The notes under the pieces were generated by a model that saw only the letters and a list, made by a program, of their open reading frames with translations, made no database searches and was not told the origin of the DNA. A stretch of DNA of 64,000 nt, taken from contig NC_017954.1 of assembly GCF_000264495.1 (NCBI RefSeq), positions 1,116,001 to 1,180,000 on the forward strand, given 5' to 3'. Positions 3,558-32,690 of this stretch are shown here, piece after piece (the first letter of the stretch is position 1; each line of letters begins with the position of its first letter). This stretch comes from Thermogladius calderae 1633. GTDB taxonomy: Archaea; Thermoproteota; Thermoprotei_A; Sulfolobales; Desulfurococcaceae. The position numbers were made by a program, and so were the translations under genes.

Positions 3558-3638
3558 TACACCGCACCCGTGGAGGCAAGCGTGTACGGGCGGTGTATAT
3601 TTCTAGGACTGGAATATAAACGTGAATGTAAGAAAAAA

Positions 3639-6512: not shown

Positions 6513-6561
6513 ATGCTCATTCCAATCATTTTATTATGAATTCATGGTCGCATCTAGGGAC
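6505..6561. repeat. 12-bp perfect inverted repeat at the element right end
   Basis: GTCCCTAGATGC (6505-6516) is repeated in inverse as GCATCTAGGGAC (6550-6561) with a 33-base loop that contains the tnpB stop codon. The inner arm encodes KSLDA of TnpB. It would form a stem-loop in the tnpB 3' transcript, directly before the macro-gene flank. Confidence 0.8.
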
Positions 6562-6680
6562 TTCCGCCTCGCCCACAGGGCTTTGGGCACCCGTGTGGGC
6601 TCATGGGCGGCCGTCGAGCCCAACGGCACGGGGCTCCCATCTACGCTTAAGCCCGCGGGGCTTGGAGCACTGCTCCCACC
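6505..6680 (-). ncRNA. Candidate TnpB guide RNA (omega RNA) overlapping the tnpB 3' end
   Basis: The last 45 or so codons of tnpB encode a low-complexity G/S/P/A-rich tail, typical where the reading frame overlaps an omega RNA. On the minus strand the segment holds several potential hairpins and ends with the 12-bp stem-loop at the element border. If the scaffold ends at 6505, the guide would be read from the macro-gene flank (6504 downward, starting AAACGGCGTGG). This is inferred from known TnpB biology, not demonstrated. Confidence 0.4.
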
Positions 6681-7808: not shown

Positions 7809-8502
7809 CGCCCTTTTCGACCTCTTCCACTAGCTTTTTGAAGCCCTCAACGAGCCTCTTTTTCCTGTGGCTCCTCATACCGTAGAGCTTGCCAGCAAAT
7901 GAGGTGACTATCGATAGTAGATCCTCCACAAGCTCCTGGTGCGCGTCCTTGGGCTCATCACCATAGACGACCTCTATCCTGACCCCGTACTGCTTGAAGA
8001 AGTACTCTAGGTACTCGAAACCAAAACGAGTTAGTCTATCCCTATATGTTACGACAACGACGTCTACCTGCCTGCTAACTACGTAGTTGAAGAGCTTAAG
8101 CAAGCCCCTGCGATCAGTCTTCAGCCCGCTAGCAACATCGCTTAAGACGTCGACTACCCTATAGCCCCTGGCAGAGCAGTACTGCGTGAGGTACTCTACT
8201 TGCCTCTCTAGGTCGCTCTTCTGGTCGCTGGAGCTGACGCGAGCGTATACTACCGCCCTGACCTCTCCCGCTGGAATGCCTTCAATGATCCTCCTGACCT
8301 CGCTCTCGGGAATCCTGTACTTTCCGCCAGCAGTCCTAATGGCTTTGATCCTGCCTTCTCTAACCCACCTAGAGAGAGTAGAATAGCTTATGCCAAGCCT
8401 CTGGCAAACCTCTTTAGGTCTAAGCAACCTCTCTGAAATAAGCAACACCAATAAACACAAACAAAACCAAAGCTCATAAACCTCACGCTCCATTATCAAC
8501 AA
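7792..8502 (-). CDS. tnpA: IS607-family serine recombinase (TnpA)
   Basis: The N-terminal MerR-like DNA-binding domain reads LLRPKEVCQRLGISYSTLSR and then WVREGRIKAIRTAGGKYRIP. The small serine-resolvase domain follows, with YARVSSSDQ; the presumed nucleophile is S90. It continues with the DVASGLKTDRRGLLKL and TYRDRLTRFGFEYLE segments of this family. The ATG at 8502 gives about 22 extra hydrophobic residues before the domain. A start at a GTG or TTG near 8448 (reading LLISERLLRPKE) is more likely by homology. The recombinase mobilises the element through a circular intermediate with little target specificity. Confidence 0.9.
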   Translation of the reverse strand: MLIMEREVYELWFCLCLLVLLISERLLRPKEVCQRLGISYSTLSRWVREGRIKAIRTAGGKYRIPESEVRRIIEGIPAGEVRAVVYARVSSSDQKSDLERQVEYLTQYCSARGYRVVDVLSDVASGLKTDRRGLLKLFNYVVSRQVDVVVVTYRDRLTRFGFEYLEYFFKQYGVRIEVVYGDEPKDAHQELVEDLLSIVTSFAGKLYGMRSHRKKRLVEGFKKLVEEVEKGGGESG

Positions 8503-17198: not shown

Positions 17199-17210
17199 AT
17201 GAAAAATAAA

Positions 17211-17255
17211 CCATATATAATCAGCAGGGAGTTATTAATCATGCACACTGCTTGG
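17211..17255 (+). promoter_or_regulatory. Promoter and ribosome site of the DUF1156-DUF499-helicase operon
   Basis: The TATA box CCATATATAA (17211-17220) predicts a transcription start around 17241. A GGTG ribosome site (about 17254-17257) lies a few bases before ATG 17262. This rules against the longer open frame starting at 17199. Confidence 0.6.
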
Positions 17256-17261
17256 TGTTAT

Positions 17262-20200
17262 ATGTTGAGCTCCTTCCTCGAGGCTGGGGAATTCCCGGTC
17301 GAGGTCGTCAATATCGCCAGTAGTAAGGAGAAGGGCCCTGGCAGGCCGCCGTTCTGGGAGATGGTGTTCTGGTGGACTAGGAAGCCTCTCGCCAGCGCTA
17401 GGGCTGTTATACTGGCGAGCCTACTGCCCGCCGACTTTAACTCGAATACCTTCCTCAGGACGGTCTACCCGAGCTATCAGGGAGGTGGGAGGTTCGGTAA
17501 GACGCCACACTTCCTCAACCCTAACTTGGGGAACCTGAGTAGGGAGCTGAGGGAGAAGATAGGAAAGGCAAGGCTCCTCGACCCCTTCGCGGGCTTCGGC
17601 TCCATACCCTTGGAGGCTGTGAGGCTGGGTGTAGGCGAAGTCGTGGCAGCAGAGCTCCTGCCCACCGCCTACATCTTCTTGAAGGCGGTCTTGGAGTACC
17701 CGAAGTGGGCTTCCAGCGAGAGGCTGGGGGAAAGGCTCGTCGGGGACGTCGAGAGGTGGGGTATGTGGGTCGTTGAGAGGCTTAGAGAGGACCCGGATCT
17801 GAGAGAGCTATACGACGAGGACGTCGCTGTCTACATAGGCACGTGGGAGGTGAAGTGCCCCTACTGCGGCAGGTACACTCCTCTAGTCGGCAACTGGTGG
17901 CTTGCGAGAGTGAAGGGCGAGAGGGGCTTTAAGGCGCTTGCCTGGATGAGGCCCGTGTTAGAAGGAGATAGGGTCGAGATCAGGGTCGAGGAGGTCACAG
18001 ACCCCGGAGAGCTGGAGTCCGCAACGCTGGTCAAGAGGGGCGATAAGATCGCCGCGGTCGAAATAAACGGGAGGAGGCTGACCGTGGGGGACCCGGCCCT
18101 CCAGGGAGACCCCAACATTAACGCAAGGAAGAGCGAGGCGATATGCCTAGCCTGCCACGCGAGGATCACGGGGAGCGGGGAGAAGTGGCACGTGAAGAGC
18201 TCGCTGAGGGAGTGGAACAGAAAGCTCGAGGAGTACCTCAGAGGAGAGATAACACTAGAACAGCTCAGGCAGGCACCGGCGAGGCCTAGGATACTCGTAA
18301 AGGTCAAGATACGGGGGGACAGTCTACACTTCGAGCCAGCCACAAGCATGGACGACGAGAAGCTCTGGAGAGCGCTTGAGAAGCTGAGGCAGATTTGGGG
18401 AGACCCAGACATACCAACAGAACCGATGACACCATACGGTGGACCCACCTTAGGAGATCCACCTTTGATCTTTAGAAACTTTTACAAGCTCTTCAACCCG
18501 CGCCAGCTCCTAACCTTGGTTAAGCTCGTCAAGCTGGTCAGGGAGGCCGGGAGGAAGGTCGAGGAGGAGAAGCTCGGAGAAGGCTGGGACAGAGAGAAAG
18601 CACACAAGTACGCGGAAGCAGTAACAACATACCTGGCAATAGCGCTAGTAAAACAAGCCGATTACAATAGTATAGTAGTAGCTTGGAATCCTGCGACGGG
18701 TTTTGGATCATCATTAGCATTACTACATGCAGGGCATACATTATCATTTAGAGGCATAGCTATGGCCTGGAACTTCGTAGAATATAATTTCATAATAGAC
18801 AAGGTTGGTTATGAGAAGTTTACCTCAATGGTTATTGATGGTCTTTCTTATCTCGTCTCTGCTGTTAGTGGTAGTCCTAGTAGGGTTAGGGTTCTGCTCG
18901 ACGATGCCACTGTTCTAAGTAAGCTCGGGGGCGAGAAGTTTGACTTGATCGTCACGGACCCGCCTTACAGGGACGACGTACCCTACGCTGAGCTCAGCGA
19001 CTTCTACTACGTGTGGCTCAAGAGGGCCTTGAGCGACGTTGAGGGCTCGTTGCTCAAGCCCAGGTTCCACGCAGATGCCTTCTTCAGGGACGGCGTCGAG
19101 GTAGCTACTCAGTGGGAGTGGTTCGCCTCCAGGGAGGTCTCTCTCAGTCTAGGGCGGTGTAAGTACTTCGAGGGGCTCGCCGAGCAACTCTGTGAAGAGA
19201 AGTACAGAGAAATGCTCGCCAAGTCTTTCAGGGCTATGGCCGACAGGCTCAGCGAGGACGGAGTACTGGTAACCTACTTTGCCCAGAGCTCCAGGGAGGG
19301 CTGGATCGCCCTAATAGAGGCGGGGTTGTCTAGGGACCTCGCGCCCACCTCCGCATTCCCGGTACTGACGGAGAGCGAGGAGAGCGTGGTCGCAAGAGGT
19401 AAATCCGCAATAACAGCCAGTATTGTCGTCTCTTGGAGGAAGGTGAAAGAGGCGAAACCCGTTGACGTTGCCGCGGATTACGAGCAGCTCCTAGACAAGG
19501 CGGTCAAAGTGGTGAAAGAGGTCGAGTCCTCGCTCGCCAAAGCCCACGAGAAGGTCGCCCCGAGCATGTTCGGGGTCACGGTGTACGTCATGTCCTACGC
19601 GAAGGTTTTAGGGTTGCTGACCAGTGGCGGGAGGCCCGTGAAGTCCGGTAAGCAGGTGGGCTCCGGCGAGATCGCCGAAATCGCCTCCGAGCTACTCGCC
19701 CGCGCCTACGCGCGGGGGGCTGGGGCAAACCTCTCGCTCGGGGACTCGGTGTTCTACTTCCTCGTCAAAAAGGTTTTCGCGAGGGGCGGGGAGGGCAGGA
19801 GGCTCGCGTCCAGCAGCGACCTAATACTCCTCAGCTACGGTACGCAAGCAGGGGGGGCCAGGCCGCTGGAGGGGTTCTGGAAGAGGGGTATAATCAAGGC
19901 CTACGGGAGGGAGGAGGAGACAGAGGTGTCGAGTAGGAAGACCTACATCCTCGTAGAGCCCTCCAGGGCTGGCGACGAGGTGGAGCTAGCCGAGGTGCTC
20001 AAGCTCCACGGGGTAAACCCGGAGAACCCAAAGACCTTCAAGAGCCCCGTCCACGTGCTCCACGCCCTGATGCTGTACTCCATGAGGCCCAAGGACGTGT
20101 TCAAGAAGTACTACGACAAGGCCTACTCCGAGAACCCCCAGTTGACGTCTGAGGCCTTGGAGCTAGCCAAGGCGCTCTCCACCCTCGGCGGCGACCCGGA

Positions 20201-20294
20201 GGCGGAGCTGTCCCTCCGAGTCCTGGACTACGTAGGTGTCAGGGTCGAGAGACAAAACAGGGGGGTGAGCCTGCTTGACTACCTCAAGCGTTAA
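17262..20294 (+). CDS. DUF1156 DNA methyltransferase (adenine-specific type, Zn-ribbon)
   Basis: The protein of about 1010 residues is of the COG1743 type. The N-terminal DUF1156 region reads FPVEVVNIASSKEKG and later FWWTRKPLASARA. The SAM-binding motif DPFAGFGSIPLEA is near residues 107-119. A zinc ribbon is formed by CPYCG (near 198) and CLACH (near 294), and the catalytic DPPYRDD is near 566. Such enzymes modify adenine in host DNA in BREX type 3 (PglXI-like) and related systems. The start is ATG 17262, chosen for its TATA spacing and GGTG site. It overlaps the DUF499 gene by 20 bases. Positions about 18590-18880 are clearly AT-richer with different codon use, hinting at a mosaic gene. 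Confidence 0.88.
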   Translation: MLSSFLEAGEFPVEVVNIASSKEKGPGRPPFWEMVFWWTRKPLASARAVILASLLPADFNSNTFLRTVYPSYQGGGRFGKTPHFLNPNLGNLSRELREKIGKARLLDPFAGFGSIPLEAVRLGVGEVVAAELLPTAYIFLKAVLEYPKWASSERLGERLVGDVERWGMWVVERLREDPDLRELYDEDVAVYIGTWEVKCPYCGRYTPLVGNWWLARVKGERGFKALAWMRPVLEGDRVEIRVEEVTDPGELESATLVKRGDKIAAVEINGRRLTVGDPALQGDPNINARKSEAICLACHARITGSGEKWHVKSSLREWNRKLEEYLRGEITLEQLRQAPARPRILVKVKIRGDSLHFEPATSMDDEKLWRALEKLRQIWGDPDIPTEPMTPYGGPTLGDPPLIFRNFYKLFNPRQLLTLVKLVKLVREAGRKVEEEKLGEGWDREKAHKYAEAVTTYLAIALVKQADYNSIVVAWNPATGFGSSLALLHAGHTLSFRGIAMAWNFVEYNFIIDKVGYEKFTSMVIDGLSYLVSAVSGSPSRVRVLLDDATVLSKLGGEKFDLIVTDPPYRDDVPYAELSDFYYVWLKRALSDVEGSLLKPRFHADAFFRDGVEVATQWEWFASREVSLSLGRCKYFEGLAEQLCEEKYREMLAKSFRAMADRLSEDGVLVTYFAQSSREGWIALIEAGLSRDLAPTSAFPVLTESEESVVARGKSAITASIVVSWRKVKEAKPVDVAADYEQLLDKAVKVVKEVESSLAKAHEKVAPSMFGVTVYVMSYAKVLGLLTSGGRPVKSGKQVGSGEIAEIASELLARAYARGAGANLSLGDSVFYFLVKKVFARGGEGRRLASSSDLILLSYGTQAGGARPLEGFWKRGIIKAYGREEETEVSSRKTYILVEPSRAGDEVELAEVLKLHGVNPENPKTFKSPVHVLHALMLYSMRPKDVFKKYYDKAYSENPQLTSEALELAKALSTLGGDPEAELSLRVLDYVGVRVERQNRGVSLLDYLKR

Positions 20295-23200
20295 GCCATT
20301 TACCAGCGTGCTCAAGCCCAGGAAGGAGGTTCTCGAGGGCAGGATAATCGAGGCCCTAAGCCTCGCAGACGCTTACATAGCTAACGAGTTGAGAGGGAGG
20401 GTCGAGGGCGTCGAGAGCCTGCCTGAGAGCCCGCTGTACGAGCCCAAGGAGTTCCTGAAGAGGACATACTTTAGCGAGTCCATGAAGAGGGTCCTCCTGA
20501 ACGTTATGGGGTCTTTAGCAGGTGTCCAGTACCTCTACAAAGACAAGGAGGGGCTAGACAAGTTTAAGGTACAGAATAGGATTCTAATTATACCCAGCCA
20601 CCTAGGGGGCGGGAAGACCCACCTCCTCACCACCCTCTACTTCGTGGCGAAGCTGGTTAACGAGGAGGGGGCGCACGCACTAAGGTACCTGGAAGTGGAC
20701 GATAAGACAAGGAATGCGCTCAAGCACGCTATAGACGTATTAGTCCAAGCGGGTAGGAAGATACAGGTAGTCGCCCTAGTAGGAGACAGGAAGTACCTCG
20801 CGCCCAGCCCGCTGAACCCCGTGACCGTCGACGGAGTGAAGGTCAACACTCCCTGGGGCCTCCTCGCCCACCTCCTACAAGAGTACGATAAAGTCCGCGT
20901 AGGAGACGAATCCTTCGCCGCCCCCTTCACCGATGAAATAAAGAAAGTACTGCGGGACAAGACCGTGCTGATACTCATAGACGAGGCCGTAGAGTACTTA
21001 GAGCACGCCACGGGCGTCTCGCGTAGAGTGAAAGACTACGACGAGTCCTACATATCCTTTTTAAAGCGGCTCGCTGAGGCTGTCAACGATACGCCAAACA
21101 GCGTGTTGGTAGTCACTTTACCCGCAGAGTACAGAGAGGGACGGCTAGAGCCTGGCCCCCAACACCCTGAGTACGTGAAGAAGATCTTCGCTGAATTAGA
21201 GAGAGTTGCACCACTGAAGCTACCTCCCATGGAGAAAAAGGAAATAGTGGAAGTGTTTAAGAGAAGGCTCTTCGAGAACGCCTACGAGAGTGATGCCAAG
21301 AGGTGTGCGGCGGAGGTCGCCGAGGAGGCTTTTAATAAGGCCAGTGCGGACAATGCCCTCTCGGACGCTATCAAAATCAGGTACGGAGACATCGCCGCTT
21401 TCAAGAGGAGCCTGGAAGGGCATTATCCGTTCCACCCGTACTTTGTGGAGACGCTCGTCAACATAGCCTCGACAAGCCCAGAGCTCGGGCTGACCAGGCA
21501 CTTGATATCCTACGTCGCGAGACTGGTAAAGGAGGTCTACGACACTGCATCACAGCGTAAGAGAGAGCCTCGTACAGCCCTATTCACAACCTGGCTCATA
21601 CCGCTCGACGCGCCCGAGTTCAGGACTGACCTGTTGAGTAAAATGCCATCAGACGTCCAGAGCGACTTCCAGAGGATCTACGAGGAGGACGTGAAGAAGA
21701 AGTTCGGGCGGAAAGTAGAGGAGTATATATGGAGCTTGGACCCCGCCTCTCCGCAGGAGGCCCGCGACTTCGTAAAGGCAGCCGTCGCTAGGACGGTCTG
21801 GCTCACGTCTATACCCGGGCGGGGTAGCAAGAGGAGCGAAGTTGCGAAGCTCTACCCAGTATCCAAAGAGCTACCCGCGCTCGTCTACGACCCGCTCGCA
21901 TTCCAGAGGGTCTTCATGGCCGACGTCGTCAACGCCGTCGATGAGCTACTAAGCGAATCGACCTACATGGTCAAGACGGATGAAAACAGGGTGCTCTACG
22001 CTAGGATCGCAGACTTGACCAAGATACTCCGCGAAAAGTACTTGAGTGTAACAGAGCACGACGCCCTCTCAGTTTTAGAGGGTTTAGTTAACGAACAGGC
22101 CATCAAAGGCGGGAGGAAGATCAGGAGAGTCCGGCCGATCACCTCACACAAGTTCCTCGAGCTCGACCTGCTCAGGAAAGAGGTCGAGGAAAACGATGAT
22201 CCACTCGTGCTTATGTACATCGGCTTACAGGAGCCCGACCAAAACCTAGTCGAGTCCCTCTTGTCGAGGAACAACGTGCTGTTCCTGCTCCCCGACTACA
22301 ACATGGACCCCATGGATTGGGGGCTGATGTACACCGAAACCATCAAGGCGATCGCCGGCAGAGAGCCCGACACTATGAGGGACTTCTTGCTCAACCTCCT
22401 CAAAGTCGTCAAGGCTGTCAGGGACTTGGCGAACAACCGCGAGTACCTTTTGGAGGTCGTGGGCGAGGAGCACCTGGACGATACACGGAACAAGCTGAAA
22501 AGGTTAGAGGAGGAGGTTGTAAGACATGTCGTGCTCGCGATATACACCATGATGAGGAGGGTAGTTATAGGGACGCGGAGGCAACAGTACGAGGTGGAAT
22601 TGAGGCCCACGGAGGGGGTCAGCGACTTATCGAACATAGTGAGGCTACTAGAGGGGGCACTGGAGAGGAGAGGCGTCATAACTAAGTGGGAGTGGAGCGA
22701 CGTCTACAACCAGCTCAGCGGGTTCAAAAAACTGTGGGACAGCAACATGAGCCTTAAGGAGCCGATCAAGGTCAAGGACCTCTGGGATCAGCTACTCAAC
22801 GCCCGCGATGTAGAGCCTCACATAACGGGCTTCAGCGACCTCCTCGACGCACTGAAGACCGCGTACGAGAACTGTATGATCGCTTTCAGGTACAAGGGCG
22901 AAGTGCTGTGGATAGACTACCCGTTCTCCGAGGCCGAGGCGGAGCAGTTCTACAGGACGGGTAGGAAGTATGCTTGCAGTTGGCAGAAGGACGTCGCAAA
23001 CAAGATGGAACGCCTCGGCGCCAGTGTCAAAGAGCTGGAGGCCGTGCACCCAAGCTTCGTCCTAAACGAGTACCTCGAGAGGCTACGTGCCAAGGCATCC
23101 ACCAAGCCCGGGGAGAGGGTGGTACGTAGACTCGCAGTGTACATGCCCGACGGTAATAAAGTGGACCTCACGACCTTCCTCGAAACGTCTAAACAAAACA

Positions 23201-24009
23201 TTGTTGAAGCTTTGTCCTCCCACCCAGTGGTACTCGTGGAGGAGACCCCGCCAAGGGTCTTCAATATGAGGGTGACTAGTGTCAACGGGAAGCAGCTCGG
23301 GAAGGAGCCCGTCGAGCTAGGAGGGGAGGGGGGTCTGGAAATCGTCGTTGAGGGCTCGATGGAGAGCGCCGAGGAGTTCCCTGTGGAGATAGAGCTCAAG
23401 GCCGTCGAGGAAATATCGAGACAAACGGCGTCCAGCAATAGAGTGGAGGCGAGATCCAAAGGATCGTTTACAGCAAAAATAACGGTGAACCAGCCAGGCG
23501 AGTACATCGTAGTAGTCACAGCTAGAGACGCCGCGGCGCCCAAGGGTTACAGGACAGAGGAGGTCCCGGTTGCCAGAGTCAGGGTCAGTGGAGAGTACTG
23601 TGTCAGTCGGTCGGTGAAAGGCGTGGACTTCGCCAATTGGGAGCCTCCAGTTGGCGTGAGGCTCGAGTTGACCAAGCTCAACATCGAGGGCCGAATCCTT
23701 AAAGGCGCGATCAAAAGTCTAGCAGACCTATTGAACTCTCTCAGCACGTACAGGATTTACGCAGACGGCTACGTTGAATTGGAGAACCAGGGCGAGGAGC
23801 TGAGGATAAGCTTCAGAAAGGCGAGCACGAACAGGCTCTCCAGGCTCCTACAGTCGCTGGGCGTGGACGTGGACGTGTACGCTAAGATAGAGCTCCAGAG
23901 CGCCGGGTCAAACATCAGACTGGCCGACCTTATAAAACTCGTTGAGGACAGGTTTAAGTCTCTCGAGGCCGTGCTGAGCCTGGATTACAGGGAGTGCAGG
24001 AGCGTGTGA
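20275..24009 (+). CDS. DUF499 AAA-type ATPase (BrxC/PglY-like)
   Basis: The 1244-residue protein has a P-loop SHLGGGKTHLLTTLY (residues 108-122) and Walker B TVLILIDEAVEYLE (230-242), with an arginine-rich lid. A long alpha-helical C-terminal part and a beta-rich region near residues 1000-1150 follow. DUF499 ATPases accompany DUF1156 methylases and helicases in BREX-like loci, where they are thought to couple recognition with exclusion of phage DNA. The start is TTG at 20275 inside the methylase 3' end, so the two are translationally coupled. The stop is separated by two bases from the next ATG. Confidence 0.85.
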   Translation: MTTSSVKPFTSVLKPRKEVLEGRIIEALSLADAYIANELRGRVEGVESLPESPLYEPKEFLKRTYFSESMKRVLLNVMGSLAGVQYLYKDKEGLDKFKVQNRILIIPSHLGGGKTHLLTTLYFVAKLVNEEGAHALRYLEVDDKTRNALKHAIDVLVQAGRKIQVVALVGDRKYLAPSPLNPVTVDGVKVNTPWGLLAHLLQEYDKVRVGDESFAAPFTDEIKKVLRDKTVLILIDEAVEYLEHATGVSRRVKDYDESYISFLKRLAEAVNDTPNSVLVVTLPAEYREGRLEPGPQHPEYVKKIFAELERVAPLKLPPMEKKEIVEVFKRRLFENAYESDAKRCAAEVAEEAFNKASADNALSDAIKIRYGDIAAFKRSLEGHYPFHPYFVETLVNIASTSPELGLTRHLISYVARLVKEVYDTASQRKREPRTALFTTWLIPLDAPEFRTDLLSKMPSDVQSDFQRIYEEDVKKKFGRKVEEYIWSLDPASPQEARDFVKAAVARTVWLTSIPGRGSKRSEVAKLYPVSKELPALVYDPLAFQRVFMADVVNAVDELLSESTYMVKTDENRVLYARIADLTKILREKYLSVTEHDALSVLEGLVNEQAIKGGRKIRRVRPITSHKFLELDLLRKEVEENDDPLVLMYIGLQEPDQNLVESLLSRNNVLFLLPDYNMDPMDWGLMYTETIKAIAGREPDTMRDFLLNLLKVVKAVRDLANNREYLLEVVGEEHLDDTRNKLKRLEEEVVRHVVLAIYTMMRRVVIGTRRQQYEVELRPTEGVSDLSNIVRLLEGALERRGVITKWEWSDVYNQLSGFKKLWDSNMSLKEPIKVKDLWDQLLNARDVEPHITGFSDLLDALKTAYENCMIAFRYKGEVLWIDYPFSEAEAEQFYRTGRKYACSWQKDVANKMERLGASVKELEAVHPSFVLNEYLERLRAKASTKPGERVVRRLAVYMPDGNKVDLTTFLETSKQNIVEALSSHPVVLVEETPPRVFNMRVTSVNGKQLGKEPVELGGEGGLEIVVEGSMESAEEFPVEIELKAVEEISRQTASSNRVEARSKGSFTAKITVNQPGEYIVVVTARDAAAPKGYRTEEVPVARVRVSGEYCVSRSVKGVDFANWEPPVGVRLELTKLNIEGRILKGAIKSLADLLNSLSTYRIYADGYVELENQGEELRISFRKASTNRLSRLLQSLGVDVDVYAKIELQSAGSNIRLADLIKLVEDRFKSLEAVLSLDYRECRSV

Positions 24010-24011
24010 GC

Positions 24012-24452
24012 ATGGGGTTGCAGATCGGCGCGAACCTTAAAGTCGTGATCCAGCCCGTCCCGGCCAAGAGGCCGTACTACATGCTCCGGGTGTACGACGA
24101 GGGCAGACTATTCCTACAGGCCAAGAGGGTGCTCAAGCCCGAGTACGTCTTGAAGTGGGTTATCTACAACCAGTCTCTCATAGAGGGGGACTTCATGAAG
24201 ATAGAGAAGAGGAAATCCGGCACCGTTGTTATTTCTGTGAGCAGGGCGGCTGACAGGCACTTCAAGCTCCTGCTCTTCCACTCGCTCAGCGTCCTCAACA
24301 TAAAGTCGTCCAAGAAGGCCGACTGCCTAGCTACTTGTTGGTCCAGCATAGACGCTATAAGCCCCGTGATCGACGCCTTGTGGAGCCTCATGATGGTCGT
24401 TGACACGAGGAGGTTCTCCAGCCTACTAAGAGGATATTGCTTATGCAGGTAG
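24012..24452 (+). CDS. Unknown 146-residue protein of the defence operon
   Basis: The ATG at 24012 follows the DUF499 stop by two bases (GTGTGAGCATG), and the stop lies 10 bases inside the helicase gene, so it is a true operon member. The N-terminal half is beta-rich and basic (PAKRPYYMLRVYDEGRLFLQ, KRVLKPEYVLKWVIYNQSL). The C-terminal half is helical with a CLATCW pair and ends in GYCLCR, so four cysteines could bind metal. No known domain is recognised. It occupies the place where other systems encode small partners such as BrxF or a specificity factor, but no similarity is seen. Confidence 0.75.
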   Translation: MGLQIGANLKVVIQPVPAKRPYYMLRVYDEGRLFLQAKRVLKPEYVLKWVIYNQSLIEGDFMKIEKRKSGTVVISVSRAADRHFKLLLFHSLSVLNIKSSKKADCLATCWSSIDAISPVIDALWSLMMVVDTRRFSSLLRGYCLCR

Positions 24453-27400
24453 AGGAGCCGGCGCTACCACTGAAGGGGGTTCTCAGCCTAGTTCTAGAGC
24501 CGTTATTCAAGTACAACCCTTTCTTCAGCCTCTACTACAACCCGTTCTCGTCCCCTCCAGAGCCCCAGGTTGTCTCGAAACCGTACCTCAACTTCCTCCA
24601 CCAAGTCTCCCTAGTATTGGACGTGATCCCCAGGAGAAGGGTGAGGCTTCTAATAGGGGACGAGGTGGGGCTCGGCAAGACTGTCGAGGCCATCCGCCTT
24701 ATCAAGTACCTAGCCATGGTGGGTGAGGCCTCGAAAATCCTGATCATCGCCCCAAGAGCCCTTATCCGGCAGTGGCTCTACTACGAGTTGTGGGACCTCC
24801 TTCACGCCCCTGGCGTCCTGAGGGTGCTTGGTAAAAAGACGGTGGAGGCAGTAAAGAGAGAACTCGAGGAGGGTGGTAAGCCCCTCATAATGGTAGCACC
24901 GCTGGACTTGGCCAAGCGTGGCACGGCGGACAAGCACGCCTATGGCCGGTACAAGCCTTACATCGAGGTACTGTCTAGTGTAGACTGGGACCTCGTGGTG
25001 TTGGACGAGGCGCACCAGGTCGGGTTCACAGGCCCCAAGCCGAGTCTCAGAGTGAAGAGGCTGAGTCCCATCCTCAAAAGAGCCAAGCACTTGATCCTAC
25101 TATCTGCCACCCCTTCCAGGGGCACTCACAAGGACATGATCTTGAGGATGTCCCTTCTCATTCCCGACGCAGACACTGCGCTGCGAGAGCTAGCCGAAAA
25201 CCCCGAAAAGCGGAAGAGACTCTACGAGGACGCGGCCGGTCTACTAGTCTACAGGAGGACAAAGGAGCACGTCAACCTGGCAGAGGGCAGAGAGGTGTTT
25301 ACGAAGCTCAACTCCTTCATGGCCCTAGTCAAGCTAGGCGAGGCAGCGCAACTCTACGAGAGGCTCGGCAAGCTCCTAGGGAGGCTTCTAGGCCTGTTTG
25401 GCTCCAACGCGAACACCCTGCTAAAGCTGGTGTTGTTGAAGAGAGCGCTTTCCAGCCCTTACGCCTTCCTGAAGACGTTCATGAAGGTGGTGGAATCCCG
25501 CTCCACTCCAGAGCCCGAGCTTAAGAGACTACGCGTTTCCGACCGCCTCGTCGAGGAAAACCCCGACGCTCTTGTAGAGGAGGTTCTCTACTCGACTATC
25601 AGGTCCGTACCAAGCGAGCTCCGCGATGAAGCAGCACTCCTCTTGTCCGAGTTCCAGAAGCTATACGAAGCCGGGGACCCCAGCTTCAGGGCCCTGGCCT
25701 ACTTGCTCTACTACTCCGCGACTGGTAGAGGCGGGGCCCCGAGCGAACTGAGAGGCGACTACATAGTGTTCAGCGAGTACAGCGACACTGTGGACTACCT
25801 CTTCTCGAAGTTCACGGAGTTCCTGAAGGGCGTGGGCTTCACCGAGAGGAGCGACCTACTCGACAAGTTGCTGGGAGGAGTTTCCGAAAAACTCTCCCAG
25901 CGGGCACCATACGCGAGGCTCAAGAGGCTCGAGTCCGTGAGAAACTCGTTCAAGGTTCTCGAGGGACAAGGCAAGTTCTTCGTCGTGGGCAAGGTCTCCT
26001 CGAAAAACCGTGAGCTCGTCTACGCGCTCCCGGCCCTCGGCGAGACGGCCGGTGAGGTGCTGGGGGCTGGCGTAGTAAAGGTCCTGTTCAGTACCGACGT
26101 AGCCTCCGAGGGATTAAACCTCCAGGAATTCAACGTCGTCGTGAACTACGACGCGACCTGGAGCCCTGTGAGGAGGGAGCAGAGGATTGGTAGAGTCTAC
26201 CGTCTGAGACAGACCAGGGACTGCAGCGTAGTCGACTTCGTCAGGTACACCACTGTAGAGCTCGCGTTCTACGAGAAGCTCGTGTTAAAGCTTCTCAACA
26301 TGCTCGAGCAGAAAGTCGCCACGAGGCCGATCGAGAGCCTGCTGGAGCTATACCTGGAAAAGGAGGGGTCTGGGGGCGGGGAGAGGCTCGTGGTCTCCGA
26401 GAAGTCTATCGGAGCCGCTCTGCTACACGTGTTCGAGGGCTACTACGCTAGGAGCCTCCCCATCGAGCCCCTCCTCGAGGAGGCCTACAAAATGCTGCTG
26501 GAAAAGCTGAGGACCTACAAAGACCTAGCCGAGTCGCTCACGCCGAGTTACGAGGAAGTGCGTAGGCTCCAGAAATATGTCTGGCATTTCACGGGTTGCT
26601 CCAGCCACGAGGAGTTCCAACGAGTTGTCCTCAGACTAGTGGAAGTATTCCTCGGTAGGCGCTATACGGAGCCTTCCAGGGCGATCAGGGAGCTATATAA
26701 GGCATTGGTGGGTCAGAAGCCCGCGACCGACCACGTGGTTGTTGTAAACGAGAGTGGGCTCGAGGAGGGCTATATCGCCGTAGTCGATTTCAAGCTCGGG
26801 GGGACGACCAGGTTTTCTACCCCGGTAGCTGTTCTGAGGAGAGGGGGCAACGTCGAAGTTCTAGTCGGGCTACAGGTACTGGACTGGCTGGCTCAGAAGC
26901 AGTCTGAGGGTAGACTTGATGTCCTCAAAGCAGATTGGGTGGGTAGCAAGCCACCGAGGATTTTGGAGGATGAGGTCTCTAAGTTAGCCAAGAAGCTGGA
27001 CCTGCTATTATACGAGCGGCTCTGGAAGAAGCGGGATAGACTCGTAGAGCTCACAAAGACCAGGCTCGTAGACTTGGAAAGGCTGGAGGCGGAGGTCGAG
27101 AGCCCCTTCATACACGTAGTTGGAGTCGGAGGCGTCGAAGAGTACGGGATCGACTGGCAGTCACTGCCCCCCGAAAAGAGGGAGTGGATGGAAAGGGTTA
27201 GCGTTGAGCACGTCGCCAGCTTATTCAGGGAAAGGGGCTGTAGGGTTCTCGAGATTAATATAGGGAAAGCGAAGCCCTACGATGTACTCGTAGAGTGCCC
27301 GGGACCTGGTGGACCGGAGAGGCTGGAGGTCGAGGTGAAAAGCCACCTGGAAAAGGTCTTCGTCGCCGGCTTAACGGATTGGGAGACCAAAGAGGCAGAG

Positions 27401-27571
27401 AAGAACCCAGCGAAGTACATTGTCTGCAACGTGGCTGGGTTGAAAGAGCCCGACAGGTCTTCGTGGGTCACTGTTTGCGGAAGGTACGCCGACCTACCTA
27501 AGAGACTTGTCGTCCAGGTTAAGGAGGAGAAGCGGGCCATCATCTTCTTCGGAGGCCGCCAGGACGTTTAA
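24443..27571 (+). CDS. SNF2-type helicase with C-terminal DUF3883 nuclease-like domain
   Basis: The superfamily 2 helicase has motif I GDEVGLGKTVEA (near 74-84), DEAH at 190-193, motif III LSATPSRG (near 223-230), motif V STDVASEGLNLQ and motif VI QRIGRVYRLRQ. The C-terminal 120 residues read KPYDVLVECPGPG, LEVEVKSHLEKVFVAGLTDWE and KYIVCNVAG. This is a DUF3883-type PD-(D/E)xK-like fold with D and ExK placed as in nucleases. The helicase resembles BrxHII/DrmD of BREX 3 and DISARM class 1. ATG 24443 is preferred over TTG 24437 because a GAGG site lies 9 bases upstream. It is the last gene of the operon. Confidence 0.87.
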   Translation: MQVEEPALPLKGVLSLVLEPLFKYNPFFSLYYNPFSSPPEPQVVSKPYLNFLHQVSLVLDVIPRRRVRLLIGDEVGLGKTVEAIRLIKYLAMVGEASKILIIAPRALIRQWLYYELWDLLHAPGVLRVLGKKTVEAVKRELEEGGKPLIMVAPLDLAKRGTADKHAYGRYKPYIEVLSSVDWDLVVLDEAHQVGFTGPKPSLRVKRLSPILKRAKHLILLSATPSRGTHKDMILRMSLLIPDADTALRELAENPEKRKRLYEDAAGLLVYRRTKEHVNLAEGREVFTKLNSFMALVKLGEAAQLYERLGKLLGRLLGLFGSNANTLLKLVLLKRALSSPYAFLKTFMKVVESRSTPEPELKRLRVSDRLVEENPDALVEEVLYSTIRSVPSELRDEAALLLSEFQKLYEAGDPSFRALAYLLYYSATGRGGAPSELRGDYIVFSEYSDTVDYLFSKFTEFLKGVGFTERSDLLDKLLGGVSEKLSQRAPYARLKRLESVRNSFKVLEGQGKFFVVGKVSSKNRELVYALPALGETAGEVLGAGVVKVLFSTDVASEGLNLQEFNVVVNYDATWSPVRREQRIGRVYRLRQTRDCSVVDFVRYTTVELAFYEKLVLKLLNMLEQKVATRPIESLLELYLEKEGSGGGERLVVSEKSIGAALLHVFEGYYARSLPIEPLLEEAYKMLLEKLRTYKDLAESLTPSYEEVRRLQKYVWHFTGCSSHEEFQRVVLRLVEVFLGRRYTEPSRAIRELYKALVGQKPATDHVVVVNESGLEEGYIAVVDFKLGGTTRFSTPVAVLRRGGNVEVLVGLQVLDWLAQKQSEGRLDVLKADWVGSKPPRILEDEVSKLAKKLDLLLYERLWKKRDRLVELTKTRLVDLERLEAEVESPFIHVVGVGGVEEYGIDWQSLPPEKREWMERVSVEHVASLFRERGCRVLEINIGKAKPYDVLVECPGPGGPERLEVEVKSHLEKVFVAGLTDWETKEAEKNPAKYIVCNVAGLKEPDRSSWVTVCGRYADLPKRLVVQVKEEKRAIIFFGGRQDV

Positions 27572-28199
27572 GCGGCCTGTGAATGGAGCTGGGCGGAAAG
27601 GCCTCCCAGCTAGCCCTCGACCCCCGCTGGACTCCCGGGCGCAGAGGGGGTTTTGTGGTTGCCGCGGCTCAGCGTCGGGGCTGCCCAGCCTCTCCGCGCT
27701 CGCTGCTTCCACCACGCGGACGGGGCTGCTGGCGGCGGGGGCTCGAACCCGTGTATGCTTTAGATCCCCCGGGCCATGTGTAGGGGTTGGCGGGCTAGCG
27801 GGGTGTAGTGGAGTGTCGTGCGGCCAAGTCGGCGCGAGTGAACTCCTTTCCTCTGTCAGAGAGAGGGTCGTAAGGTGGGCTCTGGAGCACAGGTTCGACT
27901 ACCCTTGGAGAGTGGAGAGGACGCCGTACAGGGTTCTGCTCGCCGAGTTCCTTCTCAGGAGGACCACAAGAACAGCGGTGGCCAGGGCCTTCCAAGCCCT
28001 CGTCGAGAGGTTCCCGGACGTGGAGTCGTTGCACAGTGCCCCCCTAGAGGAGGTTGAGGAGGCCCTAAAACCCCTCGGGCTGTACAGGGTGAGGGCCAGG
28101 CAGTTGAAGGAGCTCGCGGCCGTTATCGTGGAGGAGTACGGTGGCAGGATACCCGACTCGTGGGAGGAGCTGGTGAGGCTGCCGGGGGTCGGCCGCTCA

Positions 28200-28252
28200 C
28201 CCGAGAGCGGTCTTTGACTGCCTTTCATGTTTATCGATTGCCGCCCTCGGGT
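28200..28252. repeat. Imperfect 12-bp inverted repeat near the left end of the tnpB element
   Basis: ACCCGAGAGCGG and CCGCCCTCGGGT match in inverse at 11 of 12 positions and enclose about 29 bases. This could form the left-end hairpin that TnpA recognises on single-stranded DNA. Confidence 0.5.
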
Positions 28253-28342
28253 TCCCCGCGGTCTCCCCGAGCCCCCTCACCGCCCTTCTGGAGCGGATCT
28301 CGGAAACCCGGGGTCACCAACAGGCTTAAAGGGAGTTGGGGT

Positions 28343-28351
28343 TTATAAGCC
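28343..28351 (+). promoter_or_regulatory. TATA box of the second tnpB gene
   Basis: GGTTTATAAG lies about 25 bases before ATG 28370, so the transcript would be leaderless or nearly so. Confidence 0.45.
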
Positions 28352-28369
28352 TATCTGGGGAATCCCCAC

Positions 28370-29518
28370 ATGAGCTACATCACAATCGCCTTGCCCTTCA
28401 ACATCGGTGGAGAGGTCGCTGGCAAGATACTGTCCACGGCTTGGCTATTTAAAGCGGCTACTCACAGAGTGCTCCACCTTGCCAAGAGCTCGCCCGCCCT
28501 TCCGGGCTCCGACATTGGGTGGAAGGCGACCTTCAGGAAGGACGCTTACGCGGTCATACCGAACCGCAGATATGCCGACGGGGCTGTAGTATTAGTCAGG
28601 GGGATATACGAGTCCTGCAGGGAACTCGGAGTAGACTTCAGAGGAGTTGAGCTGGGGGATTGGCTGATGTTCCAGCAAGCCGAGAAGGAGTACCCCGCAA
28701 GAAACATAACCCTGAGACCGGGGGGAGAGATCCACGTGACGACCATAAGCTACAGCGGCGCAGTCGAGAGAGTGGTAGTCAAGCCCACTATCCCCAAGAG
28801 CTACGCCGCTCTCGTCGAGAAAATACTCGAGGAGAAGCAGGAGCACGCGGCTAGAGTCGTCGTCAAAGGTTACGGCGTCAGAAAGGGAGTTGTCTGGGTC
28901 AGCGGCGAAGTGCAACTGACAATTCCATTGACCTTTTACTACAGGCACATGGCAAGGTATAGAACCAACAAGGGGAGCCTCTACGGAGGCGTTGACGTAA
29001 ATGTAGACAGAGTAAACTTAGCGATAATTGACAACAGCGGGGAGCTGAGAGACACGTACACGTTCTGGTTTAGAGAGGTCGTCGCCAGAGGCTATCCTAT
29101 GAGGAGCGCCAGATCAGTCATTGGCATGAGAGTCCACGAGTTGCTCGAGTACGCCTACCACCACGGCGTCAAGGTACTGTTCCTAGAGAACCCTGCAGTT
29201 CTCGGGCGGCTCAGGTTGCTGTGGGCTAGGAGCACGGAGAGGGGGAGCGAGAACTACAACTGGAAGGTGAGCACCTTCAGGAGCTCCATTATAGAGATGA
29301 TCGCATTGAAGGCGCCGCTCTACGGCATAGAGGTTGCCTACGTGAACCCAAAGGGAACGAGCAACTCGCGAGAGCACAGCGAAGCCATGAAGAAGCTCAG
29401 GCTAGACAGGCACGCGGCCTCGGCGTACCTCATAGCGCTAAGGGGGTTGCGAAGCAAAGTAAACGAGCCCAATGATCATGAATTACGTTACAGCCCTACA
29501 CTGCGGGGGCGCTTCTAA
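28370..29518 (+). CDS. TnpB-like nuclease without zinc ribbon
   Basis: The 382-residue protein shows the three RuvC-like catalytic regions: D209 in YGGVDVNVDRVNLAIID, E273 in KVLFLENPAV and D347 in RLDRHAASAYLIAL. The usual CxxC...CxxC zinc ribbon between the last two is absent; YVNPKGTSNSREHSEAMKKL occupies the site directly. The N-terminal half is only distantly like other TnpB proteins. The stop codon lies within the glycosylase target, so the C-terminal residues (TLRGRF) are partly encoded by host DNA. It is a separate lineage from the IS607 TnpB at 6534-7808. The intact triad suggests activity. Confidence 0.83.
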   Translation: MSYITIALPFNIGGEVAGKILSTAWLFKAATHRVLHLAKSSPALPGSDIGWKATFRKDAYAVIPNRRYADGAVVLVRGIYESCRELGVDFRGVELGDWLMFQQAEKEYPARNITLRPGGEIHVTTISYSGAVERVVVKPTIPKSYAALVEKILEEKQEHAARVVVKGYGVRKGVVWVSGEVQLTIPLTFYYRHMARYRTNKGSLYGGVDVNVDRVNLAIIDNSGELRDTYTFWFREVVARGYPMRSARSVIGMRVHELLEYAYHHGVKVLFLENPAVLGRLRLLWARSTERGSENYNWKVSTFRSSIIEMIALKAPLYGIEVAYVNPKGTSNSREHSEAMKKLRLDRHAASAYLIALRGLRSKVNEPNDHELRYSPTLRGRF

Positions 29519-30087
29519 GCTTCGCCTACGGCAAGCCCGCGCCAGTGGTGGACGGGAACGTGGCGAGAGTGCTCGCCAGGCTGACGGGGCACGCCGCGAG
29601 GAGGTGGGGGGACTACCTGGCCCCCCTCCGTAGGCTGCTACCCGAGGACAGGCACCAGGAGTTCAACTACGGGCTGATAGACCTCGGCGCCCTCGTCTGC
29701 CGGCCCAGGAACCCGAGGTGCTGGGAGTGCCCTCTCAGAGACCTCTGCGCCTACTACCAGAGGGCAGTGGGGGAGGAGGCCTGCGCGCGGCGGCTAGAGG
29801 AGGCCTACGCAGAAGTCCTTCGCCCCTGAAGAGGCGCGGCTTGCGCGGTCTAGGCCAGCTACCCGTCGCGGGCCTCCCGCTCGCTATATGCGGGCGAGGA
29901 GTACCTCGAGCTCCTGGTGTCGAAGAGAGTGGTAGAGGAACCACCCGGAGACGTGGGGCTGGCGGTGTCAGAGTAAGCCGTCTACAAGCTTTGTCAATGA
30001 CCACTCTATTGCTCTCCACCCTTGTAGCGTAAAGGCGCTGAGCGCCGGGCCCCCTACTGATGCCTCTTATTTATCTTCGACAACGAG

Positions 30088-31194
30088 CTAGACTGGCTTC
30101 TGGGGGTTTACCAGGCTCATCAACAGCTTAGCGAGGTTTAGGTCCCGCTTCGACAGCTCTGCGTTGAGTAGCTCGTAGACAGTCCTCCTAGTCTCCGGCC
30201 TTACATGGGCGAGAGAGTCGACGTAGTCTAGGGGCGTGGGGAAGCCCGTCGACCCCGTCACCCCGGAGAGCGCCGCTAGGACTTCGGGCAACCCCCAGCC
30301 CCCTGCCTCGTAGACCTCTACTTTGACCGCGAGGGGGGATACGGCGAGGCGCGGCTTGTAGAACACGACCTTCACCTGGCCCGCCCACGAGCCGTACACG
30401 GTGTTCAGCCTCTCGAGCCACTCGAGCCTCGGGTAGAGGGCCCTCGCCACCTCACCGCCCGCCCTCCTCGCCGCCTCTGCCAGCCTGTCCCTCAGCTCCC
30501 TGTAACTCCCGAGGACAAAGTACTCCCCGGGCTCGAGCACGAGCGACATTAGGAGCCTGTCGTTGAGGGGTATCCCGCCCGCCCTGTAGACCGCGGAGAT
30601 GTCCCTGGAGTAGCTCCTCTTCAAGACCCCCACGAGAGGCGTGCCGGTCTCGCCGGCCAGTCTCATCGCGTTCTTGGTCTCCTCCGCGACCCGCCAGTAC
30701 GCCGCCCACTCCTCCTGCGAGAGAGTAGGCTCGGCCTCTACCCCGCCCCTGTAGAGCAGCTCCCCGTCGACAACGGCTATGTCGAACCTCGCCCAGCCCT
30801 CCTTCTTCTCCTCGAGCCTTTTTACGAGGGCCCGCCTCTCGAGCAGCCTGGCCTCGACCTCGGTCAAGTCCCTCGTGGAGTAGTGCCTGACATGGGCCAC
30901 CACCCTAGGTGGCCCGCCGCAGGAGTGCCCCATTAAGACCTCGGCGACCTGTATGACGCCTATGAAGCCTCCAGCCACCTCGATCGGCGGGGCCGTGAAG
31001 CCGCTGTCTACACTGTAGAAGCAGGCTTCTCTAGCCTCGGGGAACTTGTTTATCAGCCCCTCCTCGCGGAGCTCCTCGCCGAGCTTTAGGACCTCGTCAA
31101 CGCCCTTGGCCTGCTCGAAGACCGTCTCCGCGGCCTCTCTAACCGCCTCGTATACGACCTCGGGGGCTACGTAGACCTCCTCCTCGCTGCTCAT
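30088..31194 (-). CDS. nurA: NurA 5'-3' nuclease
   Basis: The 368-residue protein is taken from ATG 31194, which overlaps the herA stop as ATGA. The longer upstream frame is only the herA shadow. NurA motifs are visible: ACFYSVDSGFTAPP with its metal-binding aspartate near residue 60, and FDIAVVDGELLYRGG near residues 158-172. NurA degrades DNA ends together with the HerA translocase and usually with Mre11-Rad50 during recombinational repair. No mre11 or rad50 gene is adjacent. Confidence 0.87.
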   Translation of the reverse strand: MSSEEEVYVAPEVVYEAVREAAETVFEQAKGVDEVLKLGEELREEGLINKFPEAREACFYSVDSGFTAPPIEVAGGFIGVIQVAEVLMGHSCGGPPRVVAHVRHYSTRDLTEVEARLLERRALVKRLEEKKEGWARFDIAVVDGELLYRGGVEAEPTLSQEEWAAYWRVAEETKNAMRLAGETGTPLVGVLKRSYSRDISAVYRAGGIPLNDRLLMSLVLEPGEYFVLGSYRELRDRLAEAARRAGGEVARALYPRLEWLERLNTVYGSWAGQVKVVFYKPRLAVSPLAVKVEVYEAGGWGLPEVLAALSGVTGSTGFPTPLDYVDSLAHVRPETRRTVYELLNAELSKRDLNLAKLLMSLVNPQKPV

Positions 31195-32690
31195 ACGGTC
31201 TTCACCTTGATCAAGACTGGGTGTCTCAGCGGGTTGCCTAGGCCAGCGAAGTAGAACTCCCTCTCCCTCAACAGGGCAATGTTCTCCTGGGTTATACCCC
31301 CGAGGTCGAGGTCGCCCTGGAGGTTCTGCAGGTCGCCGGGTGTCTGGAGCCTGCTGAAGAAGTAGGTGTTGATGTTGTTCCTCACCCAGGTGCTGAAGTC
31401 CACGACCCTCTGGCTCACGAGGACCAGTCCAAGCCCCCACTTACGCCCCTCTCTCGCGGTCCTCTCTATTATGTCGACAGACCCGCACTCCCTGCAGGCG
31501 TAGTTGTGGGCCTCGTCTACGACGACGAGCGTGTTCACGGGCGTCTTGGTCTCGTCGATCCTGTCCCAGAGCCTACCCAGGACGGCGTTTAGTATAGAAG
31601 CCCTCTCCTCGTAGTCCACAGTGCTCAGGTCCACTACTAGGACCCTCTCCTTGTCTAGCCTCCCCAGCAACTCCCCTACTGAGAGCCTCCTCCGCTTGAG
31701 GGACTCGAAGAACCCCCTCGCCTTAGACGCTAGTTTGACCCTGTACTTGGCGGGGGTGGTCTTCTTCGCCCCCAGCGCCTTCGCGACCGATGACAAGACC
31801 TCCCCGAACTTGGCGAGGTCCCAGTTAACATGCTTCAACGCTTCCTCCGGGTTCGTGCTGAGGAACTCGGAGATTATCCCCTCTAGCCCTCCCTCATCGG
31901 TCCCGCCCTCTCTCCTCCCGAACTGCCTCACCTCGCTCTGTAGCCTGGACTTCACAGCTCCCGGGTCTCCTCCCGCGACTATGTAGGCGATGAGGGTGTA
32001 GAAGAGGTAGGCGTCCTCCTCCCTCTCCTTCACGATGTTTGCGAGGTGGTTGTAGATGTCCTCGACGTCGGGTAGTACCTCGTCGGCCGATACGGCCTTG
32101 TCTGGGAAGTAGGGCTTGTAGTCCAGGCCCGAGTGGTCGAAGACCAGCACCTTCCAGTCCGTGTTGGCGAGCACCTCCTTTATGAGGGCTATGGCCAGCC
32201 TCGACTTCCCTGTCCCAGTGGCCCCCACTATCCCTATGTGGTACGGGAGGCTCTTCGGCGACAGGGGGATCTCGATACCGCTGTACTTGTGGCTCCCGAC
32301 GACCAGACCCTTCTCCAGCTTCAGGTTGACGTCGCTGGGTGACTCGACGAGGTAGACCTCGCTACGAGGAGTGGGCGGCTGCGTGGAGGGCTCTAGTGAA
32401 CCGTCCTCTCTCAGCACGCCTATGATCCTCACGGCCGAGGTCTCGAAGACGACCTCCCTCCCCATCCTCGCAAGGCCGGGGTTGTCCACTACACTAGACC
32501 TAAGGTTGGGGCTCAAGAGGGGGTCCTGCATTCTCAGGTTGCGGAGTACTCCCAGGTAGTTCAGGTTCTTGGCCTCGTCCTTCACGACCACGAAAGCCTC
32601 CTCTTTCGCGTCGAGCTCGCACTGCTTGTACACCTGGATTGGGGCTATAGCGGCCGAGGAGCCGCTGGCCACGACACCGATAGGCTTCAT
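31191..32690 (-). CDS. herA: HerA hexameric DNA translocase/helicase
   Basis: The 499-residue FtsK/HerA-type ATPase has an N-terminal HAS-barrel-like domain (residues 1-120). Walker A GIVGATGTGKSRLA is at 153-166, and Walker B NTLVVVDEAHNYA lies past residue 390. A C-terminal arginine-finger region reads LVLVSQRVVDFSTWVRNN. Two cysteines in CRECGS follow Walker B. It pumps DNA to the NurA nuclease. herA and nurA overlap by four bases and form an operon. Confidence 0.9.
   Translation of the reverse strand: MKPIGVVASGSSAAIAPIQVYKQCELDAKEEAFVVVKDEAKNLNYLGVLRNLRMQDPLLSPNLRSSVVDNPGLARMGREVVFETSAVRIIGVLREDGSLEPSTQPPTPRSEVYLVESPSDVNLKLEKGLVVGSHKYSGIEIPLSPKSLPYHIGIVGATGTGKSRLAIALIKEVLANTDWKVLVFDHSGLDYKPYFPDKAVSADEVLPDVEDIYNHLANIVKEREEDAYLFYTLIAYIVAGGDPGAVKSRLQSEVRQFGRREGGTDEGGLEGIISEFLSTNPEEALKHVNWDLAKFGEVLSSVAKALGAKKTTPAKYRVKLASKARGFFESLKRRRLSVGELLGRLDKERVLVVDLSTVDYEERASILNAVLGRLWDRIDETKTPVNTLVVVDEAHNYACRECGSVDIIERTAREGRKWGLGLVLVSQRVVDFSTWVRNNINTYFFSRLQTPGDLQNLQGDLDLGGITQENIALLREREFYFAGLGNPLRHPVLIKVKTV

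What the first reader, a model, noticed from the sequence alone, without database searches (positions are those of the whole stretch)
27813..29829. TnpB-only element cleanly interrupting a MutY/Nth-type glycosylase
The two halves of the glycosylase are perfectly readable and only about four residues are missing, so the insertion is recent. Loss of an adenine glycosylase or related enzyme could raise mutation rate in a hyperthermophile. The TnpB keeps D209, E273 and D347 but lacks a zinc ribbon, and there is no TnpA, so mobility must be in trans.
Basis: partly seen in the sequence, partly recalled or inferred. Interest (0 to 1): 0.75.

Follow-up and report, generated by a model that had tools for sequence, protein, structure and literature searches.

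The report
TnpB element with divergent guide-RNA candidate
A small jumping element recently landed inside a DNA-repair-type gene of a heat-loving archaeon; it belongs to a widespread family whose only protein is a compact Cas12-like nuclease and which carries, on the opposite strand right up to its end, a strongly conserved folded RNA that is probably the nuclease's guide.

Summary
The insertion is real and recent. A 1300-bp element (28195-29494) splits a MutY-type glycosylase. A same-genus genome carries the empty site (97% DNA identity); no residue was lost. The element belongs to a family found in 69 of 197 genomes of the order and in Vulcanisaeta and Caldivirga. Its only ORF is a ~362-residue Cas12f/TnpB-fold RuvC protein without a zinc ribbon.

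A ~125-nt block between the left terminus and tnpB is a covarying structured RNA (28 of 35 pairs change on both sides; 92% of cells paired versus 43-48% when slid). Fold energy and G-U asymmetry place it on the strand opposite tnpB. It shares one palindromic TATA box with tnpB and stops exactly at the element boundary, so its 3' extension would be the flanking host DNA, like a TnpB guide RNA. Known omegaRNAs instead come from tnpB mRNA at the right end. The RNA is kept in many tnpB-less miniature copies (up to 43 RNA matches per genome). One complete genome with such miniatures has neither known TnpA type.

Guide function, transcription and the transposase are inferred or unknown. The mutator idea is weak: two related glycosylases remain and the gene adjoins an Hma defence operon.

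The parts
27813..28194 (+). 5' part of the interrupted MutY-type HhH-GPD glycosylase (start codon uncertain), ending ...LPGVG
   Evidence: 97% identical uninterrupted in G186
28195..29494 (+). whole inserted element, 1300 bp; starts GCTCACCCGAG, ends GTTACAGC; 1-nt ambiguity (C)
   Evidence: exact fit to the empty site in G186, and the same rule in other copies with empty sites
28195..28318 (-). structured noncoding RNA (candidate guide-RNA scaffold), two 5' stem-loops plus a terminal stem around a 12-bp hairpin; 3' end at the element boundary
   Evidence: covariation, fold z -4.05, strand tests, own-genome CM match 1144192-1144319 minus, E 9.2e-24
28175..28194 (-). host flank that would be the ~20-nt guide, 5'-GGCCGACCCCCGGCAGCCTC-3'; its first two bases pair with the scaffold in the alignment
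   Evidence: inference from RNA polarity and boundary
29494..29496 (-). candidate target-adjacent motif on the minus strand, 5'-GGG-3' (AGG in subgroup 2), next to the guide target in the empty site
   Evidence: conserved right-flank bases that empty sites show to be host DNA; role inferred
28342..28349 (.). palindromic TATA box TTTATAAG between the divergent RNA and tnpB; 27.5 nt from the RNA start, 24.5 nt from tnpB ATG
   Evidence: 32 of 36 copies match at 6 of 8 or better in the minus-strand position, background 9%
28357..28367 (.). palindrome GGGGAATCCCC between TATA box and tnpB start; replaced by other palindromes in other subgroups
28370..29518 (+). tnpB-like gene, 382 codons (about 362 family codons; tail and stop from host DNA); RuvC D209, E273, D346; no zinc ribbon
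29495..29829 (+). 3' part of the interrupted glycosylase, PYTAGALLSFAYGK... to stop

Best explanation
The window holds an autonomous copy of a Thermoprotei mobile-element family made of one protein and one RNA. The protein is a compact Cas12f/TnpB-fold RuvC nuclease without a zinc ribbon. The RNA is transcribed divergently from tnpB from a shared TATA box, folds into about 125 nt of conserved helices, and ends at the element's left terminus, so that its 3' extension is the neighbouring host DNA. Shown: insertion, exact ends, empty sites, conserved covarying structure, strand preference, promoter-like sequence, and retention of the RNA in tnpB-less miniature copies. Inferred: the RNA is the guide RNA of the TnpB-like nuclease. 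The RNP would recognise GGG (or AGG) followed by the guide match, which are adjacent only in the empty allele, cut empty alleles, and let the element be copied back by repair. Each miniature copy would supply its own guide to a nuclease made in trans. The enzyme that inserts the element at new sites is unknown.
For: Insertion and ends: empty sites in relatives for the window copy, four other full-length copies and three miniature copies. Structure: RNAalifold -86.5 versus column-shuffled -10.4 +/- 2.8; lower on the minus strand in 33 of 36 copies; 28 of 35 pairs with changes on both sides, 91.9% of cells paired, slid controls 43-48%. Strand: G-U 93 versus A-C 40 cells; 21 sequences versus 5, sign p 0.0025. 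Promoter: TATA at 27.5 nt in 32 of 36. Scaffold ends at the boundary, and flank bases 1 and 2 covary with scaffold bases (27 C-G versus 9 G-C; Fisher p 0.005 for the second). Protein fold: Cas12f Z 18.4 over residues 1-368, TnpB 8exa Z 13.7. G-rich TAMs are known for a subset of TnpBs (PMC10278001). The RNA is kept in miniature copies.
Against: No transcript data were available, so RNA expression is not shown. A single-stranded DNA hairpin used by a transposase could also show strand asymmetry and end at the boundary, and several pairs of the terminal hairpin favour A-C over G-U on the minus strand. The TAM is read only from flank conservation. No biochemical activity is known for this lineage, and Pfam/NCBIfam TnpB models match only below their cut-offs. 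Miniature copies could keep the left end simply because it is a required terminus.
Confidence: 0.68

Rival explanations
1. An ordinary TnpB-only (IS1341-type) IS200/IS605 element mobilised in trans by a Y1 TnpA; the left-end structure is only the DNA hairpin recognised by the transposase.
For: No target duplication; left-flank bases pair with an internal element sequence, as in IS200/IS605 cleavage-site/guide pairing (the family logic is from general knowledge). Four of 19 carrier genomes have PF01797.
Against: Y1 is absent from the window genome and from 15 of 19 carriers, including a complete genome with recent miniature insertions. The conserved structure extends over ~125 nt with two further helices and a phased TATA box, more than one terminal hairpin needs. 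The right flank is also conserved.
Confidence: 0.15
2. Mobilised in trans by an IS607-type serine TnpA, such as the one encoded in the window at 7792-8502.
For: 15 of 20 genomes searched have a serine recombinase, the window genome two; IS607 prefers (G)GG and makes no duplication (PMC6188088), and the element sits in G/C runs.
Against: IS607 exchange needs the same 2 bp at both ends. Here subgroup-2 ends differ (GC left, CC/CT right), and empty sites are one base longer than that rule predicts. Several carriers, one complete, lack the family.
Confidence: 0.05
3. The element is an intron-like IStron, spliced from the host mRNA so that the glycosylase still works.
For: Joined flanks restore the reading frame exactly; several copies sit inside genes.
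Against: The structured RNA is on the strand opposite the host gene here; other copies lie antisense to their host genes or between genes; no Rfam intron match. Any insertion without duplication restores the frame when the flanks are joined.
Confidence: 0.03
4. The divergent RNA is an antisense or regulatory RNA controlling tnpB or transposition, not a guide.
For: It is divergent from tnpB and shares its promoter; no guide activity has been shown.
Against: It does not overlap tnpB. It ends exactly at the element boundary, its terminal helix includes the first flank bases, and it is retained in tnpB-less copies.
Confidence: 0.09

Closest known systems
TnpB-omegaRNA systems of IS200/IS605 elements (ISDra2-type)
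   Same: RuvC nuclease of the TnpB/Cas12f fold; structured RNA whose scaffold ends at the element terminus so that the flank would be the guide; short conserved flank motif as TAM; insertion without duplication
   Different: RNA lies upstream of tnpB on the opposite strand with its own promoter, not processed from tnpB mRNA at the right end (PMC10278001); no zinc ribbon; GGG/AGG flank motif; no TnpA and usually none in the genome
IscB/IsrB (omegaRNA encoded upstream of the nuclease gene; from general knowledge)
   Same: RNA encoded on the 5' side of the nuclease gene
   Different: IscB RNA runs in the same direction as iscB with a 5' guide; here the RNA runs opposite and the flank is at its 3' end; the protein is of the Cas12f/TnpB type
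Cas12f (type V-F)
   Same: best structural match over the full length
   Different: embedded in a mobile element with no CRISPR array; much shorter, lacks the zinc ribbon; no sequence match in PDB
Haloarchaeal sotRNA/omegaRNA (RF02656, RF02657)
   Same: archaeal tnpB-associated structured RNA
   Different: those overlap the 3' end of tnpB in sense (PMC12558985); no Rfam match here

Membership tests
TnpB (RNA-guided nuclease family) | RuvC D-E-D catalytic residues | tested here: met
   D209, E273, D346 invariant in 11 relatives
TnpB (RNA-guided nuclease family) | TnpB/Cas12f overall fold | tested here: met
   AF2 pLDDT 82.7; Cas12f Z 18.4, TnpB 8exa Z 13.7 over 1-364
TnpB (RNA-guided nuclease family) | Curated TnpB sequence models (NF040570, PF07282 TNB) | tested here: not met
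   14 bits of 100 and 17.2 of 26.3; TIGR01766 26.6 of 32. Filed as TnpB-like.
TnpB (RNA-guided nuclease family) | Zinc-ribbon target-nucleic-acid-binding domain | tested here: not met
   no TNB match above cut-off; short low-confidence loop 283-296 in its place
canonical omegaRNA architecture | Scaffold overlapping the tnpB 3' end and the right end, same strand | tested here: not met
   right end ~60 nt with weak consensus fold; structured RNA is at the left end on the minus strand
canonical omegaRNA architecture | Scaffold 3' end at the transposon end, followed by host-encoded guide | tested here: met
   last helix ends at the boundary fixed by empty sites; transcription not tested
canonical omegaRNA architecture | RNA binds the protein and directs DNA cleavage next to a TAM | not testable with these tools
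   conserved flank motif only
IS200/IS605 | Insertion without target duplication | tested here: met
IS200/IS605 | Y1 TnpA in the element or available in the genome | tested here: not met
   absent in the window genome and 15 of 19 carriers
IS607 | Identical 2-bp core at both ends and in the target | tested here: not met
   subgroup 2 left GC, right CC/CT; empty sites one base too long
IStron (group I intron plus IS) | Group I intron on the host-gene strand | tested here: not met
   no Rfam match; structure on the opposite strand
MutY glycosylase (host gene) | HhH-GPD plus 4Fe-4S domain, mutY model | tested here: inconclusive
   TIGR01084 186 bits, cut-off 286.5; lacks the C-terminal domain; substrate unknown

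The most novel reading that the evidence does not exclude
The TnpB-like protein with its divergent RNA is the whole mobility machine: an RNA-directed element that moves, and moves miniature copies, without any TnpA. The RNA both pairs with two target bases at the insertion point and guides the nuclease.
Probability: 0.15. Interest if true: 0.92.

Novelty: new variant of a known kind. Interest (0 to 1): 0.62.

Why it matters
If the RNA is the guide, this is a TnpB lineage whose guide is not cut from its own mRNA but made from a dedicated divergent promoter and encoded at the other end of the element. That would show that guide position and strand are evolvable in the ancestors of Cas12. The miniature copies would be many separately guided targets served by one nuclease, close in logic to a dispersed CRISPR array. 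The protein is about 362 residues, lacks a zinc ribbon, comes from hyperthermophiles and may use a G-rich TAM. The absence of known transposases in carriers with recent insertions makes 'how do TnpB-only elements move?' testable.

Tried and rejected
A boundary model with CCGT as left TAM and CAGCCC as the element's right end was used first; empty sites in G186, G035 and G060 rejected it in favour of ...CC|GTTC...CAGC|CC.... An IStron/intron reading was rejected. IS607 trans-mobilisation was rejected by junction arithmetic. A canonical right-end guide RNA was looked for and not found: weak consensus fold. Viral contigs gave no relatives. Two weak extra RNA-model matches in the own genome (108030 and 1354403, E 0.0026) were not interpreted. 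Literature searches found no description of a divergent left-end TnpB guide RNA; the library lacks many subscription papers, including the main TnpB classification paper, so absence there is weak evidence.

Full report
Observation. The window lies in a 1,356,318-bp single-contig genome, a size that I recall for Thermogladius calderae; that name is inferred, not given by a tool. The glycosylase reads in one frame to LPGVGR (28196), then six codons of other sequence and a stop, and resumes with YTAGALLSFAYGK at 29497. A genome of the same genus, G186, holds the gene uninterrupted, 493 of 510 bases identical without a gap, reading GGCC|CCTACACTG. Subtracting this gives an insert of 1300 bp, 28195-29494, with one ambiguous C; no host residue is lost. 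The insertion is therefore younger than the split from G186.

Host gene. It is closest to MutY (TIGR01084, E 7.7e-55, below the curated cut-off) with an HhH-GPD domain and an iron-sulphur motif. The genome keeps a 43%-identical MutY-type gene at 572454 and a 33%-identical HhH-GPD gene at 761542. The interrupted gene directly follows genes matching HmaB, HmaC and HmaA defence models (17199-27571) and precedes a divergent NurA-HerA pair. It may be an accessory of that island; a mutator effect is not supported.

Protein. Relatives at 60-69% identity occur in several families of the order, 69 of 197 genomes with any match, and in Vulcanisaeta and Caldivirga at 61-68%; this spread points to horizontal movement. 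D209, E273 and D346 are invariant. No PDB sequence matches, but the AlphaFold2 model (pLDDT 82.7, pTM 0.61) aligns over its length with Cas12f (Z 18.4, rmsd 11.7, 312 aligned) and TnpB 8exa (Z 13.7); residues 203-366 match RuvC (Z 15.5, rmsd 2.9). The large rmsd over the full length means domain arrangement is only roughly matched.

Ends and target. Empty sites were found for the window copy and for L006, L018, L016 and L012 (the L016 and L012 sites come from more distant homologues), and for three miniature copies in the 1,669,696-bp genome. All fit a simple insertion without duplication. In subgroup 1 the left flank ends R-C-C (27 of 27), in subgroup 2 A-G-C (9 of 9). The right flank starts with a C run or CCT (a few right ends were mis-picked by the script, so those counts are approximate). 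Because empty sites carry these bases, both flank motifs are properties of the target.

The RNA. Alignments of left ends showed strong conservation between terminus and tnpB. On 36 copies the consensus energy is -86.5 kcal/mol, against -10.4 +/- 2.8 after column shuffling, and the minus strand folds better in 33 of 36. With the structure fixed, 91.9% of cells pair, 28 of 35 pairs show changes on both sides, and sliding the partner drops pairing to 43-48%. In the helices common to both strands' predictions, G-U outnumbers A-C 93 to 40 on the minus strand; 21 sequences favour the minus strand and 5 the plus (p 0.0025), although several pairs of the terminal hairpin go the other way. A TATA box matching at 6 of 8 or better sits 27.5 nt (median) before the RNA start in 32 of 36 copies against a 9% background; in most copies the same box is about 25 nt before the tnpB start. 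The RNA therefore points out of the element at its left end, and its terminal helix includes the first two host bases; both covary with internal bases (27 C-G versus 9 G-C; A-U/G-C association p 0.005). These counts are not corrected for phylogeny. Rfam has no match.

Miniature copies. A covariance model found 233 matches at E <= 0.01 in 28 genomes, many more than tnpB copies: 12 in the 1,669,696-bp genome, 43 in Caldivirga MU80; the weakest of these matches may be chance. In the former most are ~305-bp internal deletions that keep the whole RNA, its promoter and the right end, each in a different site. In Caldivirga 16 of 20 fetched loci are tnpB-less by motif search and 3 carry tnpB; one did not align. 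Three of the former have empty sites in a sister species. That genome has no Y1 TnpA and no serine recombinase.

Mechanism. Published TnpBs process the omegaRNA from their own mRNA; the right end marks the scaffold's 3' end and the guide follows outside the transposon; most TAMs are AT-rich with a G-rich subset (PMC10278001). By analogy, here the guide would be the left flank read on the minus strand, with GGG or AGG as TAM. TAM and guide match touch only in the empty allele and are separated by the insertion, so the RNP would cut empty alleles and spare occupied ones. This step is inferred. So is the use of many miniature-borne guides by one nuclease.

What stays open. Transcription, RNP formation, cleavage, and the enzyme for insertion at new sites. 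The Y1 and IS607 explanations are each disfavoured by absence of the gene in some carriers, and IS607 also by the junctions, but a transposase lost recently or of another family is not excluded. Novelty relative to the literature rests on an incomplete library.

Noticed in passing
17199-27571: Hma-type defence operon: DUF1156 adenine methylase (HmaB), DUF499 ATPase (HmaC), SNF2 helicase with NOV_C domain (HmaA), directly before the interrupted glycosylase; NurA and HerA follow on the other strand (30088-32690).
   Followed up: partly
6534-8502: A two-gene IS607-type pair on the minus strand: TnpB with the zinc-ribbon TNB domain and a serine TnpA with MerR-type HTH.
   Followed up: partly
L105 (= L016), around 2276-3660: In a Zestosphaera tikiterensis MAG an element copy splits a TIP49/RuvBL-like gene that is otherwise conserved across the order; no second copy of that gene showed in the DNA search.
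   Followed up: partly
28357-28367 and the same place in relatives: Between TATA box and tnpB start each subgroup has a different palindrome (GGGGATTCCCC, GGGTATATACCC, GGCTATAGCC), perhaps an operator or a 5' hairpin.
   Followed up: no
G000:C1:1048760-1049521: A second, distant TnpB-like gene (31% identity to this one) elsewhere in the host genome.
   Followed up: no
L190, L191 (G000:C1:108030 and 1354403): Two equal-scoring weak matches to the RNA model (27 bits, E 0.0026) in the host genome, possibly a repeat or a related end.
   Followed up: no
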